From assembly GCF_030519475.1 (NCBI RefSeq), contig NZ_JAUMKD010000004.1, forward strand, positions 1 through 64,000: a DNA stretch of 64,000 bases, in the 5' to 3' direction. The stretch's first letter is position 1, and every line of letters begins with the position of its first letter. The notes beneath the pieces were generated by a model that worked only from the letters and a program-made list of their open reading frames with translations, was not told the DNA's origin and did no database searches. This document shows positions 24,314-31,074 of this stretch, one piece after another. Both the position numbers and the translations under genes were made by a program. Origin of the DNA: Micromonospora sp. C28SCA-DRY-2. GTDB taxonomy: Bacteria > Actinomycetota > Actinomycetes > Mycobacteriales > Micromonosporaceae.

Positions 24314-25897
24314 TCAGTAGGCGCCCTTGCGGGCGAGCACCACGCCGACCGTGCGCCACAGGATGCTCAGGTCGTAGGCCAGCGACCAGTTGTCGACGTA
24401 GTAGAGGTCGAGCCGGACCGCCTCGTCCCAGGACAGGTCGGAGCGGCCGGAGACCTGCCAGAGCCCCGTCATGCCGGGACGCACCAGCAGCCGGCGGCGC
24501 ACGTCGCCGAGGAAGTCGCCGTCGTCGGCGGGCAGCGGACGCGGCCCGACCAGCGACATCTCGCCCCAGAGCACGTTGATCAGCTGCGGCAGCTCGTCGA
24601 GCGAGGTGGCCCGCAGGAAGCGGCCCACCGGGAAGACCCGGGGGTCCTGCTTCATCTTGAACAGCATGCCGTCGGTCTCGTTCTGGTCGACCAGGCTGGC
24701 CAGCCGCTCCTCGGCGTCGACGTACATGGTCCGGAACTTCCACACCCGGAAGGTGCGGCCCTCGTGGCCCACCCGCGGCTGGCGGAAGAAGACCGGCCCC
24801 GGGTCGGAGATCCGGATCGCGATGGCGATGGCCACGAAGACCGGGATCAGCAGCAGCAGCCCGAGCCCGGCGGCCACCCGGTCCATCAGGTTCTTGGCCA
24901 GCAGCGCCGGCCCGGACAGGGTCGGCTCCTCGACGTGCAGCAGCGGCAGGCCCTCGATCGGGCGGATGTGCACCCGGGGGCCGGCGATGTCGGTCAGCTG
25001 CGGCGCCACGACCAGGTCGACGCCGGAGCCCTCCAGCTGCCAGGCCAGCCGGCGCAGCTCGCCCGGCTCGGCGCTGGCCGAGCCGCAGACCGCGATGGTG
25101 TCGCCGCCGACCTCGCGGACCAGGGCGAGCACGTCGCGGCCGGCGTACACCGGGACCGGGGTCTGCATGCCCCGGGCGGCCGCGTAGCCGTCGGTGACGT
25201 GGATGGCGACCGGCATCAGCCCGGCCGCCGGGTTGCGGGTGACCGCTGTGTAGACCTCGAGGCACTCCGGCAGGGTGCCGACCAGCACCATCCGGTGCCC
25301 CGCCTGGCCGATGTTGCGCCGGACCACGTGCAGCACGAAGCGGCAGAGGATCCGGTTCAGCAGGATCAGCATCAACGCCGCGAGCAGGGCGGTGCCGACG
25401 GTGTACCGGGACAGGTCGGTCTTGGTGGCGAAGGCCAGGAAGGAGACCGTGGCGGCCACCGCCACCCCGGCCCGGATCACCCGCTTGAACTCGTCCGGCC
25501 CGAGGCCCAGGTAGCGCCGGTCGTAGGCGCGGTTGCCCCAGAGGATCACCACCCAGCCGAGCGGCAGCAGCAGGAAGGCCACCGTGTGGAACCAGGTCGG
25601 GTCCTGCTCGGCGTTGTAGAAGCCGGCCCGGGACTGGTCGAACGCCTGGATGGCGATCAGGCTGGCCACCGCCGCCGCCGCGAAGTCGAGCAGCAGGAGC
25701 AGGGCGATGTAGGGGCGGTGCCAGCGCGACACCCGGCGGCGGGCCCGGGCCCACGCCGAACGCGGTACGCCGTTGTGGGACGGCGGCGCCGGCGGCTGGA
25801 TCTCGAAGCTGTCGACGTGCCGCACGAGTTTGCTCCGGCCTTCGTTGGTTACCGGGCGCTGGAGGCTTGTCGTCACCTCACCCATGTCCTCCCGCAT
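24314..25897 (-). CDS. polyprenyl-phosphate glycosyl-1-phosphate transferase
   Basis: This 527-residue enzyme of the WbaP/CpsE type starts exopolysaccharide or glycopolymer synthesis by moving a sugar-1-phosphate onto undecaprenyl phosphate. It has four N-terminal helices, a central nucleotide-binding-like domain and a C-terminal catalytic domain with the motifs FRVWKFRTMYVDAE, LRATSLDELPQLINVL, MSLVGPRPL and RPGMTGLWQVSGRS. The start is ATG 25897, or 25885. A TATAGT box at 26055-26060 would give a leader of about 150 nt. The nearby LCP, GT and UDP-sugar genes fit a shared envelope polymer route. Confidence 0.92.
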   Translation of the reverse strand: MREDMGEVTTSLQRPVTNEGRSKLVRHVDSFEIQPPAPPSHNGVPRSAWARARRRVSRWHRPYIALLLLLDFAAAAVASLIAIQAFDQSRAGFYNAEQDPTWFHTVAFLLLPLGWVVILWGNRAYDRRYLGLGPDEFKRVIRAGVAVAATVSFLAFATKTDLSRYTVGTALLAALMLILLNRILCRFVLHVVRRNIGQAGHRMVLVGTLPECLEVYTAVTRNPAAGLMPVAIHVTDGYAAARGMQTPVPVYAGRDVLALVREVGGDTIAVCGSASAEPGELRRLAWQLEGSGVDLVVAPQLTDIAGPRVHIRPIEGLPLLHVEEPTLSGPALLAKNLMDRVAAGLGLLLLIPVFVAIAIAIRISDPGPVFFRQPRVGHEGRTFRVWKFRTMYVDAEERLASLVDQNETDGMLFKMKQDPRVFPVGRFLRATSLDELPQLINVLWGEMSLVGPRPLPADDGDFLGDVRRRLLVRPGMTGLWQVSGRSDLSWDEAVRLDLYYVDNWSLAYDLSILWRTVGVVLARKGAY

Positions 25898-27033: not shown

Positions 27034-28308
27034 GTGAGAATCGTGGTGGCGCACAACCGGTACCGGGAAGCCCAGCCGTCCGGGGAGAACACCATCGTCG
27101 ACGCGGAGATCGCCCAGCTCACCGCGGCGGGCGTCGAGGTGCTGCCGTTCCTGCGCAGCTCGGACGAGATCCCGACGATGCCGAAGACGGCCAAGGCGCT
27201 GCTGCCGATCTCCCCGATCTACGCGCCCCGGGCCCAGCAGGAGCTGAGCCGGTTGATCACCGAGCACCGGCCGGACGTGCTGCACCTGCACAACCCGTAC
27301 CCGCTGCTCTCGCCGTGGATCGTGCGGACCGCGCACCGGCACGGCGTGCCGGTGGTGCAGACGGTGCACAACTACCGCCAGGTCTGCTCCTCCGGGCTCT
27401 ACTTCCGGGACGGGATGATCTGCCAGGACTGCCGGGGCCGGGCCCTGGGGGTGCCGGCGATCGTGCATCGCTGCTACCGGGGCTCCCGGGCGCAGAGCGC
27501 CCTGATGGCCACCACGCTGGCCGTGCACCGGGGCACCTGGCGCTCGGTGGACCGGTTCGTCGCGCTCACCTCGGCGGTCGCCGACCACCTGCGTGACTAC
27601 GGCATCCCGGCGGAGCGGATCGTGGTCAAGCCGAACGGCATCCCCGACCCGGGCCGGCCCGCGCCGCTCGGCGAGGGCTTCCTCTTCCTCGGCCGGCTCT
27701 CCCCCGAGAAGGGGCTGGACCTGCTGCTGGACGCGTGGCGGCGGCACCCGGACGGCGCCCTCGGCCCACTGCGGGTGGCCGGTGACGGCGAGCTGCGCCC
27801 GCTGGTCGAGGCGGCGGCCGCCGAGCGGGCCGACGTCACCTTCCTGGGCCCGCTGGACCGTGCCGGGGTGCGCGCCGCGCTGGAGTCCAGCGCCGTGGTG
27901 CTGGCCACCTCGACCTGGCACGACGTGCTGCCCACGGTGATCATCGAGGCGCTGGCCGCCGGCCGGCCGGTGCTCGGCACCGCCCTCGGCGGCATCCCCT
28001 ACCTGGTCGGCGCGGACACCCCCCGGGAGCCGGCCGGCACCGGGCCGGCGGCGGTGGCCTCCGCCGTCGCGGGCGACGGGATGGCCACCCTGCCGTCGGG
28101 CGTGGTCGCGGGCGAGGCGGGCTGGGTGGTGCCGCCGGAGCCGGCCGCCCTGGCCGCCGCGCTGCCGCTGGCCCGGGCGGGCGCCGGGACGCTGTCGGCC
28201 GCCGCCCGCGCCCGCTACGAGCGGACCTTCCACCCCGACGTGGTCACCAAGCAGCTCATCGACATCTACGCCGGCGTGATGCGCACCGGAACGCCCGTCG
28301 ACCGCTGA
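27034..28308 (+). CDS. GT4-type glycosyltransferase
   Basis: This 424-residue GT-B enzyme has an N-terminal acceptor domain (HNRYREAQPSGENTIVDAEI, DVLHLHNPYPLLSPW, QTVHNYRQVCSSG) and a C-terminal donor domain (VVKPNGIPDPG, FLGRLSPEKGLDLLLDAW, DVLPTVIIEALAAGRPVLGT). A cysteine cluster (CSSG, CQDC and a later C) is typical of a subgroup of envelope glycosyltransferases. It is cytoplasmic or membrane-associated. GTG 27034 follows TAGCCT by 8 nt. It probably adds a sugar to a lipid-linked glycan; donor and acceptor are unknown. A bidirectional palindrome follows. Confidence 0.88.
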   Translation: MRIVVAHNRYREAQPSGENTIVDAEIAQLTAAGVEVLPFLRSSDEIPTMPKTAKALLPISPIYAPRAQQELSRLITEHRPDVLHLHNPYPLLSPWIVRTAHRHGVPVVQTVHNYRQVCSSGLYFRDGMICQDCRGRALGVPAIVHRCYRGSRAQSALMATTLAVHRGTWRSVDRFVALTSAVADHLRDYGIPAERIVVKPNGIPDPGRPAPLGEGFLFLGRLSPEKGLDLLLDAWRRHPDGALGPLRVAGDGELRPLVEAAAAERADVTFLGPLDRAGVRAALESSAVVLATSTWHDVLPTVIIEALAAGRPVLGTALGGIPYLVGADTPREPAGTGPAAVASAVAGDGMATLPSGVVAGEAGWVVPPEPAALAAALPLARAGAGTLSAAARARYERTFHPDVVTKQLIDIYAGVMRTGTPVDR

Positions 28309-28479: not shown

Positions 28480-28529
28480 AGATCTTGGTAGGAAACGGCC
28501 CCTATAGGGGCCACTTGCTACCAAGATCT
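28480..28529. terminator. two-part cruciform between convergent genes
   Basis: Outer arms AGATCTTGGTAG (28480-28491) and CTACCAAGATCT (28518-28529) flank 5-nt bulges and a perfect 16-bp palindrome GGCCCCTATAGGGGCC (28497-28512). It lies between the convergent glycosyltransferase and CDP-alcohol transferase genes. The rest of 28309-28479 is Pro-codon-like C-rich sequence without recognisable features. Confidence 0.75.
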
Positions 28530-28533
28530 CTCG

Positions 28534-28589
28534 GCGCGGGGCGCGGGGCGCGGGGCGCGGGGCGCGGGGCGCGGGGCGCGGGGCGCGGG
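28534..28589. repeat. 8 x 7-bp tandem repeat (GCGCGGG)
   Basis: Eight exact copies of the heptamer GCGCGGG end 1 bp before the stop codon of the CDP-alcohol transferase gene. Slippage could easily change copy number. It lies outside the coding region unless the stop is lost. Confidence 0.95.
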
Positions 28590-28590
28590 G

Positions 28591-29313
28591 TCAGCGGAGG
28601 GAGGCGCGGGCCGAGAAGGCGATGCTGGCCAGCAGGAAGCCCCCGTTGACCACGGTGAAGGCGACCACCACCCAGAACGCCAGGGCGGGGGCGAGCAGCA
28701 GCACCAGCGCGGCCACGAAGATCACCGCGCCGTAGTCGCGGACCAGCTTCACCAGGCGTACCGGCAGCGAGGTCGAGGTGACCATGCTGGCCGCGTTCGG
28801 ACCGGCCTGCATGACCGAGGTGACCAGGTTGACCATCCAGGTGCCGGCGAAGGCCGCGACCAGCCAGGTGGGCGTCGACGGCTCCTGCGCCACGGCCGTG
28901 GCCGCCAACGCGGCGACCAGGGCGATCTGGGCGGCCACGTCGCAGAGCACGTCGACCCGGGCGCCGGCCGCGCTGCCCTGCCCGGTCACCCGGGCCAGCT
29001 GACCGTCCGCGCAGTCCAGGGCGTACGCCACCTGCCAGCCGACCAGCGCGAGCAGCCCGACCACCCAGGCCGGTGTGTCCCCGTCGGCGACCGGCCCGGC
29101 GAGCGCCACCACGGTCACCGAGGTGGCCAGGCCGAGCACCAGGTTGGTCATGGTCAGCGCGGTGGGCGGCAGCCCGAGCCGCTGGGCGACGAGCGCGAAG
29201 ACCGCGCCCAGCCACTGGCTGATCGATTCGCTGAACAGGCCGCCACCGCGGTTGACCCGGTGGAAGTCGGCGACGGTGGGGCGGGGCTCAGCCAAGCTGG
29301 TCGCGGATTGCAC
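28591..29313 (-). CDS. CDP-alcohol phosphotransferase
   Basis: This 240-residue integral membrane enzyme joins an alcohol to the phosphate of a CDP-activated alcohol with release of CMP. The CDP-alcohol transferase signature D-x2-DG-x2-AR-x8-G-x3-D-x3-D is complete (DCADGQLARV followed by GARVDVLCD). About six helices follow and precede it. GTG 29313 lies inside the end of the dehydrogenase gene, so it is coupled to the two-gene pathway upstream. Possible products are a phospholipid or a soluble phosphodiester such as a glycerophospho-polyol. A heptamer repeat abuts its stop codon. Confidence 0.9.
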   Translation of the reverse strand: MQSATSLAEPRPTVADFHRVNRGGGLFSESISQWLGAVFALVAQRLGLPPTALTMTNLVLGLATSVTVVALAGPVADGDTPAWVVGLLALVGWQVAYALDCADGQLARVTGQGSAAGARVDVLCDVAAQIALVAALAATAVAQEPSTPTWLVAAFAGTWMVNLVTSVMQAGPNAASMVTSTSLPVRLVKLVRDYGAVIFVAALVLLLAPALAFWVVVAFTVVNGGFLLASIAFSARASLR

Positions 29314-30355
29314 CGGCGTAGTCTGCCAGCCGTTCCCGCGTCTCGGTAGGCGTCATCGCGAGGTGTTCGAGGATGGTGTAGCGGTCCGGCCGGGTGGCCG
29401 GCGCGAACTGCACCGCCTCGGTGAACTGCTCGTCGGTCAGCCCCAGCTCGGCCGGCGTGGTGGCCAGACCGTGCCGGTGCAGGCAGCGGGCGAGCCGACC
29501 GAACCGGTCCAGATCTCCGCGCAGGAAGGTGCAGAACAGGGCACCGAGCCCGACCTGCTCGCCGTGCGAGCCGGTGCCGGGATAGAGCCGGTCGATCGCG
29601 TGGGAGATCTCGTGGTCGCCACCGCTGGCCGGGCGGGTCGACCCGCACACCGAGCTGGCGATCCCGCCCAGGATCAGCGCCTCGGCCAACGTGGTGAGGA
29701 AGCCGTCGTCGGTGATCTTGCCGGGGTGGTTGAGCAGGGCCTCGGCGCCGGTGCGGGCCAGGGTGACGGCGAGCCCGTCGATCGGCTCGCCGCGTACCTC
29801 GTGGGCGAGTTCCCAGTCGGCGCAGGCGTTCAGGTTGCTCACCGCGTCGCCGATGCCGGCCTGGGTCTGCCGGTCCGGGCCGGTCTCCACGAAGTCGAGG
29901 TCGACCATGACCGCGATCGGGATGTGCACCCCGTAGGAGCCCTTGCCGCCCTCGTGGTCGAGCGAGGCGGTGGGTGAGGCGATGCCGTCGTTGGCCAGGC
30001 TGGTCGCCACGGTCACCATCGGGATGCCGTACCGGGTGGCCGCGTACTTGGCGGTGTCGATGGTCTTGCCGCCGCCGATGCCGACCACCGCGTCGTACTG
30101 GCGGCGGCGCAGCCGGTCGCCGAGTTCGTTGGCGGCGTCGATGGTGCCGCCCGCGACCGTGAACACGTCGGCCGCGCCGAGCGACGGCCGGCACAGCTCG
30201 ACGATCTTCTCGCCCTGGCCGGGACCGACCACCACGGCGACGTCGCCACCGGCGGAGATCCGCCGGTCGGCCAGGAGCGGGCCCAGGTCGGCCACCGCCC
30301 CCCGCCGGACCTCGATGGCCAGCGGGGTGTTGACCGTACGGGCTAGTAGCGGCAC
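29288..30355 (-). CDS. sn-glycerol-1-phosphate dehydrogenase-like enzyme (AraM/EgsA family)
   Basis: This 355-residue member of the iron-containing alcohol dehydrogenase fold shows the archaeal-type glycerol-1-phosphate dehydrogenase pattern: VVGIGGGKTIDTAKYAATRYG for NAD(P), then TSLANDGIASPTASL, and three metal ligands in GIGDAVSNL (Asp), GDHEISHAID (His) and SHGEQVG (His). It would reduce dihydroxyacetone phosphate to glycerol-1-phosphate. GTG 30355 has GGGAG upstream and overlaps the nucleotidyltransferase gene by 13 bp; the next gene overlaps its end by 26 bp. 2-Deoxy-inosose-synthase-like or other polyol roles cannot be excluded. Confidence 0.85.
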   Translation of the reverse strand: MPLLARTVNTPLAIEVRRGAVADLGPLLADRRISAGGDVAVVVGPGQGEKIVELCRPSLGAADVFTVAGGTIDAANELGDRLRRRQYDAVVGIGGGKTIDTAKYAATRYGIPMVTVATSLANDGIASPTASLDHEGGKGSYGVHIPIAVMVDLDFVETGPDRQTQAGIGDAVSNLNACADWELAHEVRGEPIDGLAVTLARTGAEALLNHPGKITDDGFLTTLAEALILGGIASSVCGSTRPASGGDHEISHAIDRLYPGTGSHGEQVGLGALFCTFLRGDLDRFGRLARCLHRHGLATTPAELGLTDEQFTEAVQFAPATRPDRYTILEHLAMTPTETRERLADYAGAIRDQLG

Positions 30356-31074
30356 GCGATCTCCCGCGCCCGGGCCAGGTCGGCGTGGTTGTCCACCTCG
30401 ACCCAGGAGACGTCCCCGATCGGCGCGGCCCGCACCTCGCCGCCCCGGTCGGCGAACTCCTGGTAGCCGTCCTCGTAGTAGAGGTTCGGGTCCCGCCGCC
30501 AGGTGGCCTCCAGCGCGTCGGCCAGGGCGTCGGCCACCTGCGGCTCGATCAGCGTCGCGCCGATGTACTCGCCGTACGCCTCGCCCGGGTCCATGATCTT
30601 GGTGATCCGGGTGAGCTGGCCGGCCGCGTCGAAGGTGGTCTTCATCTCCTCCTCGGCCAGCGCCTTGATCGTGTCGACGGCGAGCAGGATGCCCGGCCCG
30701 CGCTCGGCCAGCAGCGTCTTCTCCACGCTCACCGGGTGCACGGTGTCGCCGTTGACCAGCAGCACGCCCCGGGAGAAGTGCTCCCGGGCCAGCCAGAGCG
30801 AGTAGGCGTTGTTCCACTCCTCGGCCTTGTCGTTGTGCACCAGGGTGAGCGTGACGCCGTACCGCTTCTCCAGGTCGGCCTGCCGCTCGCGGACCGCGTC
30901 CGCCGCGTAGCCGACCACGATCACGATCTCGGTGAGCCCCACCTCGGCGAGGTTGCGCAGCGCGATGTCCAGGATGGTGGTCTCACCGTCCACCGGCACC
31001 AGCGCCTTGGGCAGGGTGTCGGTGTACGGGCGCAGCCGGCGCCCCGCCCCGGCCGCGAGCACCATCCCGATCAT
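30343..31074 (-). CDS. sugar/polyol-phosphate nucleotidyltransferase
   Basis: This 243-residue nucleotidyltransferase has the N-terminal signature MVLAAGAGRRLRPYT followed by PKALVPV, a NGDTV metal site and VEVDNHADL near the end. Such small single-domain members (COG1213-like) activate phosphocholine, inositol-1-phosphate or glycerol phosphate with CTP. ATG 31074 is set by GGAGGA 7 nt upstream; a longer version from 31107 lacks one. It is the first gene of a three-gene overlapping operon with the dehydrogenase and CDP-alcohol transferase, which suggests it makes the CDP-activated alcohol they use. Confidence 0.88.
   Translation of the reverse strand: MIGMVLAAGAGRRLRPYTDTLPKALVPVDGETTILDIALRNLAEVGLTEIVIVVGYAADAVRERQADLEKRYGVTLTLVHNDKAEEWNNAYSLWLAREHFSRGVLLVNGDTVHPVSVEKTLLAERGPGILLAVDTIKALAEEEMKTTFDAAGQLTRITKIMDPGEAYGEYIGATLIEPQVADALADALEATWRRDPNLYYEDGYQEFADRGGEVRAAPIGDVSWVEVDNHADLARAREIACRY

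What the first reader, a model, noticed from the sequence alone, without database searches (positions are those of the whole stretch)
28591..31074. Coupled G1P dehydrogenase / CTP-transferase / CDP-alcohol transferase operon: possible new polyol-phosphodiester pathway
Three genes overlap in one operon. The first is a small nucleotidyltransferase with PKALVPV and NGDTV. The second shows the archaeal-type glycerol-1-phosphate dehydrogenase pattern (GGGKTIDTAKY, DGIASPTAS and a complete metal triad). The third is a CDP-alcohol transferase with an intact DG-AR motif. In order they could make glycerol-1-phosphate, activate it as a CDP-glycerol, and join it to another alcohol. Bacterial AraM proteins otherwise feed PcrB lipids; this combination recalls di-glycerol-phosphate or glycerophospho-inositol solute synthesis, or an envelope polyol. 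The product is inference.
Basis: partly seen in the sequence, partly recalled or inferred. Interest (0 to 1): 0.7.

Follow-up and report, generated by a model that had tools for sequence, protein, structure and literature searches.

The report
G1P-type CDP-glycerol operon for envelope polymer
Three overlapping genes in a Micromonospora-like bacterium look like a separate route to activated glycerol, starting from the archaeal mirror form of glycerol phosphate, and relatives in other actinobacteria often sit among envelope-polymer genes, so it probably supplies a cell-envelope polymer and can be tested at the bench.

Summary
In detail: three minus-strand genes overlap by 13 and 26 nt: an NTP-transferase, a glycerol-1-phosphate-dehydrogenase-like Fe-ADH, and a CDP-alcohol phosphotransferase (PT) with intact motif. 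NTP and ADH are a fixed pair: 73 of 77 ADH places in 296 class genomes have NTP directly upstream; PT follows in 77 of 80 named loci. Outside Micromonosporaceae the pair often lies near a DUF5941/PT protein and a GT2, in some lineages also an ABC-2 exporter; one locus has NTP-ADH-ABC2-ABC-(GT2-TagF) in a row. TagF-family polymerases occur in 69 of 72 carriers against 47 of 224 others; TagD at >=100 bits in 0 of 72 against 22 of 224. No PcrB was found in this genome. Best reading: ADH makes sn-glycerol-1-phosphate, NTP activates it to CDP-glycerol, and a teichoic-acid-type polymer or its lipid anchor uses it. The solute reading is less supported. Substrates are inferred; the genome also has a CDP-ribitol-synthase-like protein; co-occurrence is confounded by phylogeny; in Micromonosporaceae the operon stands alone. 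A 2026 paper lists the Streptomyces synteny with tagGH; in the passages seen it proposes no pathway.

The parts
30343..31074 (-). NTP-transferase, proposed CTP:sn-glycerol-1-phosphate cytidylyltransferase (243 aa)
   Evidence: Pfam NTP_transferase 52 bits; best PDB relative LicC CTP:phosphocholine cytidylyltransferase 1jyk, E 9.7e-16; 60-97% identical to 14 homologues
29288..30355 (-). Fe-ADH of the G1PDH/AraM type, proposed sn-glycerol-1-phosphate dehydrogenase (355 aa)
   Evidence: NCBIfam G1PDH model 245.7 bits, best of the 11 listed but below its cut-off of 413; GldA model 70.8 bits; PDB G1PDH 4rgq E 2.7e-43, while the top hit 3ce9 (E 2.4e-44) is labelled glycerol dehydrogenase; G1PDH signatures conserved
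28591..29313 (-). CDP-alcohol phosphotransferase (240 aa) with intact D1xxD2G1xxAR..G2xxxD3xxxD4 motif
   Evidence: Pfam CDP-OH_P_transf 38 bits; AF2 model pLDDT 91.5; VIA Z 19.2 to AF2299, 17.8 to IPCT-DIPPS, 14.8 or less to CPT1 and PIPS
28480..28529 (.). 50-bp near-perfect palindrome between the convergent PT and GT4 genes; possible transcription end, function not shown
   Evidence: arms 25 nt, 88% complementary, no loop; the consensus scan found no T-run terminator

Best explanation
An alternative CDP-glycerol supply line of archaeal stereochemistry for an actinobacterial envelope polymer. Step 1 (inferred from family and residues): the Fe-ADH reduces dihydroxyacetone phosphate to sn-glycerol-1-phosphate (G1P). 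Step 2 (inferred from family and the fixed pairing): the LicC/IPCT-like NTP-transferase couples G1P to CTP, giving CDP-glycerol with the phosphate on sn-1, the enantiomer of TagD's product. Step 3 (inferred from context): the CDP-glycerol feeds a teichoic-acid-type system of GT2-TagF polymerase, DUF5941/PT protein and an ABC-2 exporter; in Micromonospora that system sits at a second locus (G000:C1, about 1.561-1.567 Mb). Step 4 (weakest): the membrane PT moves glycerol phosphate from CDP-glycerol onto a membrane acceptor, such as diacylglycerol or a polyprenyl-linked sugar, as primer or lipid anchor. Shown here: gene content, order, conservation, folds, co-occurrence. Not shown: any substrate or product. 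My split: step 1 0.8, step 2 0.65, envelope use 0.6, membrane acceptor 0.4. (Envelope use and the total were lowered slightly on recheck, because 25 of 26 named loci outside Micromonosporaceae show no exporter within 7 kb.)
For: Pairing: 73 of 77 ADH places in 296 class genomes have NTP immediately upstream on the same strand, 64 of them with the same 10-nt overlap of the coding matches. 80 of 80 named loci have the pair and 77 of 80 also a PT next. Same genus: 37 of 37 genomes carry the ADH (E <= 4.6e-148; one, G014, in two pieces). ADH: the G1PDH model outscores GldA by 175 bits in the window's protein; 16 of 16 homologues match the G1PDH model, best E 1.4e-77, and also GldA, best E 3.3e-26 (ranking per member not printed). 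The [NH]DG..SP and RP.SG..H signatures are kept in 16 of 16 homologues and shared with PDB G1PDHs 4rgq and 5fb3; the RP.SG stretch is missing in three of three GldA rows. No PcrB hit in this genome, while B. subtilis and four archaeal controls ring. Envelope context: of 40 loci that I chose from 37 genomes (35 of the 72 class carriers plus G018 and G036), 21 have both ABC-2 genes within 7 kb, 27 a DUF5941/PT-type hit, 30 a GT2 downstream; of 26 named loci outside Micromonosporaceae, 24 have the DUF5941/PT-type hit and 23 the GT2. L070 has NTP-ADH-ABC2-ABC-(GT2-TagF) on one strand. Micromonospora locus B carries ABC2-ABC-(PT-DUF5941)-(GT2-TagF), its exporter genes 44% and 61% identical to those clustered with the pair in L080. 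Co-occurrence: TagF family in 69 of 72 carriers vs 47 of 224 non-carriers; TagD >=100 bits in 0 of 72 vs 22 of 224. PT model nearest to AF2299 (Z 19.2) and IPCT-DIPPS (17.8), above CDP-DAG users.
Against: The ADH does not reach the G1PDH equivalog cut-off (245.7 vs 413). No substrate pocket was modelled for ADH or NTP. In 54 of 54 loci L128-L181 (Micromonosporaceae by record title, except L139, an Actinomycetales MAG) the three genes stand alone: no exporter or DUF5941 hit within 7 kb, no GT2 downstream, no TagF within 10 kb, some contigs being short. Of 26 named loci outside Micromonosporaceae only 1 has an ABC-2 pair within 7 kb. TagF lies within 10 kb in 5 of the 40 chosen loci and 0 of 80 named ones. 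Three carriers lack TagF at E<=1e-20: G299 (100% complete), G155 (91%), G217 (68%). Carriers fall in only 9 families, so the counts are not independent. Nine carriers, all of family f33, have a weak TagD-like hit (62.8-68 bits) that could be another CDP-glycerol source. The window's genome also has an IspD+SDR fusion like a CDP-ribitol synthase beside a second ABC-2 pair, so its TagF could use CDP-ribitol. The PT outside Micromonosporaceae is only 21-29% identical to the window's and in the four rows aligned has D4 changed to H.
Confidence: 0.52

Rival explanations
1. Compatible-solute route: CDP-glycerol is joined by the PT to a water-soluble alcohol phosphate, giving a diglycerol-phosphate or glycerophospho-inositol type solute.
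For: The NTP + PT pair resembles the archaeal IPCT-DIPPS protein: its NCBIfam model hits both proteins (52.6 and 28.6 bits), and the PT model is near 4mnd (Z 17.8). In 54 of 54 loci L128-L181 the operon stands alone.
Against: Outside Micromonosporaceae the pair lies with GT2 and DUF5941/PT genes, in part with an ABC-2 exporter, in L070 with TagF. Both hits are far below the IPCT-DIPPS cut-off of 580. I did not search for solute genes.
Confidence: 0.17
2. Membrane lipid route: the PT couples CDP-glycerol to diacylglycerol and makes phosphatidylglycerol or a related headgroup lipid in one step, independently of any polymer.
For: The PT is a helical membrane-type CDP-alcohol phosphotransferase whose phmmer hits are choline/ethanolamine phosphotransferases. 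Phosphatidylglycerol carries its free glycerol phosphate as sn-1 (PMC7086022 passages), which G1P would give directly (inference).
Against: The genome has 8 CDP-OH_P_transf matches, this one included, so a usual route is likely there too (they were not sorted by function). GT2 and exporter neighbours elsewhere are not needed for a plain lipid.
Confidence: 0.15
3. Another polyol: the Fe-ADH reduces a ketose phosphate other than dihydroxyacetone phosphate and the NTP makes another CDP-polyol for teichoic-type polymers.
For: Cut-off for G1PDH not reached; the NTP family is broad (LicC, IPCT, MurU, AglF).
Against: The G1PDH signature residues are kept in 16 of 16 homologues; a CDP-ribitol route in this genome looks filled by an IspD+SDR fusion.
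Confidence: 0.13

Closest known systems
TagD/TagF wall teichoic acid pathway (Bacillus)
   Same: Proposed product CDP-glycerol; TagF-family polymerase in 69 of 72 carriers and an ABC-2 pair with the own genome's GT2-TagF
   Different: Cytidylyltransferase of another family (Pfam NTP_transferase), paired with a G1PDH-like enzyme; stereochemistry would be sn-1 instead of sn-3; TagD at >=100 bits in 0 of 72 carriers
AraM-PcrB archaeal-type lipid route (Bacillus)
   Same: G1PDH-type Fe-ADH
   Different: No PcrB found in this genome; ADH is fixed to an NTP-transferase
IPCT-DIPPS (archaeal di-inositol phosphate synthesis)
   Same: NTP-transferase plus CDP-alcohol phosphotransferase as a pair; PT fold Z 17.8
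   Different: Separate proteins far below the IPCT-DIPPS cut-off; third gene is a G1PDH-like dehydrogenase; GT2 and DUF5941/PT context elsewhere
AF2299 CDP-alcohol phosphotransferase
   Same: Closest solved fold, Z 19.2, rmsd 3.1 over 218 residues; motif intact
   Different: 14% identity; AF2299 is longer (332-341 residues in the chains); its physiological role is not known to me
LicC CTP:phosphocholine cytidylyltransferase
   Same: Best PDB sequence relative of the NTP gene
   Different: Only about the first 100 residues align well; choline genes were not searched for
Streptomyces syntenic region with araM, tagG, tagH, CDP-alcohol PT, GT2 and nucleotidyltransferase (PMC13118837, passages seen)
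   Same: Same gene set, tied there to teichoic acid biosynthesis and secondary metabolism
   Different: In the passages seen, no pathway, stereochemistry or TagD/TagF pattern is proposed; the paper is about Streptomyces

Membership tests
G1P dehydrogenase (EgsA/AraM) | Curated score of NCBIfam NF002022 (413 bits) | tested here: not met
   245.7 bits, though the best of the models listed; so described as G1PDH-like, not filed as a proven G1PDH
G1P dehydrogenase (EgsA/AraM) | Signatures shared with solved G1PDHs 4rgq and 5fb3 ([NH]DG..SP, RP.SG..H) and aligned D, H, H metal positions (ligand roles recalled) | tested here: met
   D170 is E in one of 16 homologues (L076)
G1P dehydrogenase (EgsA/AraM) | Tree position with solved G1PDHs | tested here: inconclusive
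   The actinobacterial clade is firm (100/99), but GldA rows join among the G1PDH rows by long branches
G1P dehydrogenase (EgsA/AraM) | Dihydroxyacetone phosphate -> sn-G1P activity | not testable with these tools
   needs enzyme assay
CDP-alcohol phosphotransferase (PF01066) | Pfam cut-off and complete motif | tested here: met
   38 vs 22 bits; D100, D103, G104, A107, R108, G117, D121 invariant, D125 near-invariant in 43 rows
CDP-alcohol phosphotransferase (PF01066) | CDP-AP fold | tested here: met
   pLDDT 91.5, Z 19.2 to AF2299
IPCT-DIPPS | Curated score of NF041135 (580 bits) for the bifunctional protein | tested here: not met
   52.6 and 28.6 bits on two separate proteins
TagD glycerol-3-phosphate cytidylyltransferase | TIGR01518 cut-off 165.4 bits | tested here: not met
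   best hit in own genome 40.3 bits; the operon's NTP gene belongs to another Pfam family
Teichoic acid polymer system | TagF-family polymerase and ABC-2 exporter in the same genome | tested here: met
   own genome GT2-TagF 397 bits plus ABC-2 pair at G000:C1; not linked to the operon
Teichoic acid polymer system | Glycerol-phosphate polymer in the envelope | not testable with these tools
   needs chemistry
AraM-PcrB lipid route | PcrB in the genome | tested here: not met
   no hit with PF01884 at E <= 0.001; controls ring in 7 of 14, B. subtilis among them

The most novel reading that the evidence does not exclude
Many actinobacteria (Micromonosporaceae, Streptosporangiales and others) build glycerol-phosphate envelope polymers from CDP-sn-1-glycerol made by the ADH-NTP pair instead of TagD. 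Their intracellularly made polymer would then have the G1P configuration otherwise known from LtaS-made lipoteichoic acid, which would explain how actinobacteria without LtaS and TagD make both polymers with one machinery, and would give archaeal-type G1P a bacterial role beyond PcrB lipids.
Probability: 0.38. Interest if true: 0.82.

Novelty: new variant of a known kind. Interest (0 to 1): 0.62.

Why it matters
Lipoteichoic acid has been isolated from Streptomyces hygroscopicus although clear LtaS orthologues are missing from actinobacterial genomes, and its chain is very close to that organism's wall teichoic acid, so one shared machinery was proposed but not proven (PMC3196553, abstract and passages). 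Wall and lipoteichoic glycerol polymers of B. subtilis are enantiomers (PMC7086022, abstract and passages). A G1P-based CDP-glycerol supply would name candidate donor enzymes, predict the handedness of the actinobacterial polymer, and give AraM-type enzymes a second role. Each point can be tested with three small enzymes and a stereospecific hydrolase.

Tried and rejected
PcrB-lipid use of G1P: rejected for this genome, no PcrB hit.

Ordinary glycerol dehydrogenase or 3-dehydroquinate synthase: rejected, G1PDH model 245.7 bits vs 70.8 and 37.3; signatures differ. Against this, the top PDB hit 3ce9 is labelled glycerol dehydrogenase; in it the motif reads SPASG in place of RP.SG.

TagD present elsewhere in the genome: best hit 40.3 bits.

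'NTP is the only CDP-polyol source here': dropped after an IspD+SDR fusion was found at G000:C3.

First PT model from 9 rows was poor (pLDDT 53.5) and was not searched; the 43-row model replaced it. Families missing from the VIA list were not taken as excluded.

Tree of Fe-ADHs: 16 actinobacterial ADHs used of 77 places listed; L126 (shikimate kinase/AroB fusion) and 4rfl (near-duplicate of 4rgq) left out. I do not rest on its deeper order.

Counts: four genomes with weak ADH hits (G086, G170, G318, G319; E 8.0e-18 to 1.2e-22) dropped, leaving 72 of 76. NTP is listed in 71 of the 72; the other, G142, has only a fragment at a contig end, which one search counts as a pair. TagD set at >=100 bits: 22 of 41 genomes with a hit; the 19 weaker ones were not counted, nine of those are carriers. 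Fisher p (6.6e-32 for TagF) treats genomes as independent and overstates the case.

The labels are best tblastn queries; PT and DUF5941/PT share a domain, so their counts can trade: PT downstream in the 40 loci is 24 and 28 by my reading.

Literature: searches returned no paper; others returned, judged by titles and abstract starts and by passages of seven papers, none describing this pathway; PMC13118837 describes the synteny. The Thermobifida LTA paper and the AF2299 structure paper are not held and are recalled only.
Full report
What is there. On the minus strand lie three genes: an NTP-transferase (31074-30343), an Fe-ADH (30355-29288) and a CDP-alcohol phosphotransferase, PT (29313-28591). 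They overlap by 13 and 26 nt. Pfam assigns all three above cut-off. The host is a Micromonospora-like genome (6.65 Mb, 19 contigs): by the ADH, the nearest named records are Micromonospora phytophila (93%) and M. costi (91%).

The dehydrogenase. The NCBIfam G1P-dehydrogenase model is by far its best match (245.7 bits; GldA 70.8; AroB 37.3), though below the curated cut-off of 413. Sixteen of 16 aligned homologues match that model, best E 1.4e-77; all 16 also match the GldA model, best E 3.3e-26; the ranking per member was not printed. Solved G1PDHs match at E 2.7e-43 (4rgq) and 9.4e-37 (5fb3); the top hit, 3ce9 at 2.4e-44, is labelled glycerol dehydrogenase. The [NH]DG..SP and RP.SG..H signatures are shared with 4rgq and 5fb3, and three of three GldA rows lack RP.SG. 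Positions D170, H248 and H264 align with the metal ligands as I recall them. I call it G1PDH-like; the activity is inferred.

The nucleotidyltransferase and the phosphotransferase. The NTP gene's best solved relative is LicC, with IPCT proteins further down; neither fixes the substrate. The PT carries the complete CDP-AP motif. A good AlphaFold2 model (pLDDT 91.5) is closest to AF2299 (Z 19.2) and IPCT-DIPPS (17.8), above CPT1 (14.8), PIPS (14.6) and PGP synthase (9.8). I read this as a lean towards a water-soluble CDP-polyol donor over CDP-diacylglycerol; the fold alone does not prove it.

Conservation. Same genus: 37 of 37 genomes have the ADH (one in two pieces); 0 of 24 other genomes of the order do, their best hit being 5.8e-10. 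In 296 class genomes, 72 have it at E < 1e-90 (tallied). Of 77 ADH places, 73 have NTP directly upstream, 64 of these with the same 10-nt overlap of coding matches. In 80 named loci the pair is present 80 times and a PT follows 77 times. So NTP+ADH is the core unit and PT a frequent partner; in L070 no PT was found beside the pair.

Surroundings. In 54 of 54 loci L128-L181 (Micromonosporaceae by title, except MAG L139) the three genes stand alone. Elsewhere the context is of an envelope type, with limits. Of 40 loci that I chose from 37 genomes, 21 have both ABC-2 genes within 7 kb, 27 a DUF5941/PT-type hit, 30 a GT2 downstream and 5 a TagF within 10 kb. Of 26 named loci outside Micromonosporaceae, 24 have the DUF5941/PT-type hit and 23 the GT2, but only 1 the ABC-2 pair and none a TagF (Pfam). 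In L070 the order is NTP, ADH, ABC2, ABC, GT2-TagF on one strand with gaps of at most about 100 nt. In the window's own genome the matching parts lie at another place: ABC2, ABC, PT-DUF5941 and a GT2-TagF fusion at G000:C1 1.561-1.567 Mb. The same arrangement is found in the two other Micromonospora genomes looked at (L113, L114). I infer that the operon and this locus work together; they are unlinked here.

Phyletic pattern. TagF family (PF04464, E <= 1e-20): 69 of 72 carriers, 47 of 224 non-carriers. TagD (TIGR01518, >=100 bits): 0 of 72 carriers, 22 of 224 non-carriers. Among 116 TagF genomes, 69 have the pair, 14 have TagD, 33 neither, none both. Against: carriers fall in nine families only, so this is a pattern of few independent events. 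G299 is 100% complete and has no TagF at that threshold; G155 and G217 also lack it and are less complete. Nine f33 carriers have a TagD-like hit of 62.8-68 bits; by coordinates seven of these hits lie within 1 kb of a PT relative. The window's genome has an IspD+SDR fusion beside another ABC-2 pair and a distant TagF-like protein, a likely CDP-ribitol system that could also feed TagF.

Mechanism proposed. Dihydroxyacetone phosphate -> sn-G1P (ADH); G1P + CTP -> CDP-sn-1-glycerol (NTP); use by a teichoic-acid-type polymerase and exporter, with PT placing glycerol phosphate on a membrane acceptor. Steps 1 and 2 rest on family, residues and fixed pairing; step 3 on context and co-occurrence; step 4 on fold and membrane nature only. 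The PT outside Micromonosporaceae has the fourth aspartate changed to histidine in the four rows aligned and in many motif matches, so the PTs may not all do the same thing. That AF2299 was solved with CDP-glycerol, and that D4 is the catalytic base, are recalled, not seen.

Relation to print. PMC13118837 (passages) reports the Streptomyces synteny of a CDP-alcohol PT, GT2, tagG, tagH, araM and a nucleotidyltransferase and ties it to teichoic acid biosynthesis and secondary metabolism; I saw no pathway proposed there. PMC3196553 (abstract and passages) reports Streptomyces lipoteichoic acid, the missing LtaS, and the idea of an overlap with wall teichoic acid synthesis. PMC7086022 (abstract and passages) shows the opposite handedness of the two Bacillus polymers. 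Searches returned no paper; 35, 49, 54 and 75, judged by titles, abstract starts and passages, none describing a G1P-specific cytidylyltransferase.

Verdict. The most likely role is a G1P-type CDP-glycerol supply for an envelope polymer, at about 0.52, lowered slightly on recheck for the missing exporter in 25 of 26 named loci. It is a new variant of a known kind.

Noticed in passing
window 29288-30355 compared with L138, L140, L142, L146, L148, L153: The ADH gene alone is replaced by a divergent type inside the operon in many Micromonospora: in the six loci listed, NTP bins are 90-97% identical to the window (DNA) and ADH bins 69-82%. The other type is nearer to Paractinoplanes (L140 vs L155 ADH bins 79-91%).
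   Followed up: partly
window 28480-28529: 50-bp near-perfect palindrome, arms 25 nt without loop, single in the window; of 228 loci only the two own-genome ones covering this place match.
   Followed up: partly
window 28533-28590: 7-bp tandem repeat (GGCGCGG, 8.3 copies, 100% matches) directly downstream of the PT stop codon.
   Followed up: no
L112 7295-12382 (G000:C3): Second teichoic-type cluster in the same genome: IspD+SDR fusion like a CDP-ribitol synthase, an ABC-2 pair (69% and 50% identical to the pair in L083) and a distant TagF-like protein.
   Followed up: partly
L080, L072, L085, L086 and others: The small PT downstream of ADH outside Micromonosporaceae has the fourth motif aspartate changed to histidine in the four rows aligned; motif matches with H: 20 in the 26 loci L182-L207, 19 in the 40 loci L067-L106, 1 in the 54 loci L128-L181.
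   Followed up: partly
L211, L212, L219, L220, L221, L223, L226, L227: By the coordinates, in these 8 of the 18 loci fetched a PT relative of the window's PT lies within 1 kb of a weak TagD-like gene: another cytidylyltransferase family paired with the same kind of PT.
   Followed up: partly
L110 13231-15423: The DUF5941/PT protein begins with what looks by eye like a degenerate NTP-transferase domain (AIVLAAG start), recalling IPCT-DIPPS architecture; no Pfam hit supports this.
   Followed up: no
window 24314-25897 and 27124-28308: A Bac_transf sugar-phosphate transferase and a GT4 glycosyltransferase lie next to the operon but are kept there in only 2 of the 4 other Micromonospora loci compared (L068, L106; not L067, L105).
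   Followed up: partly
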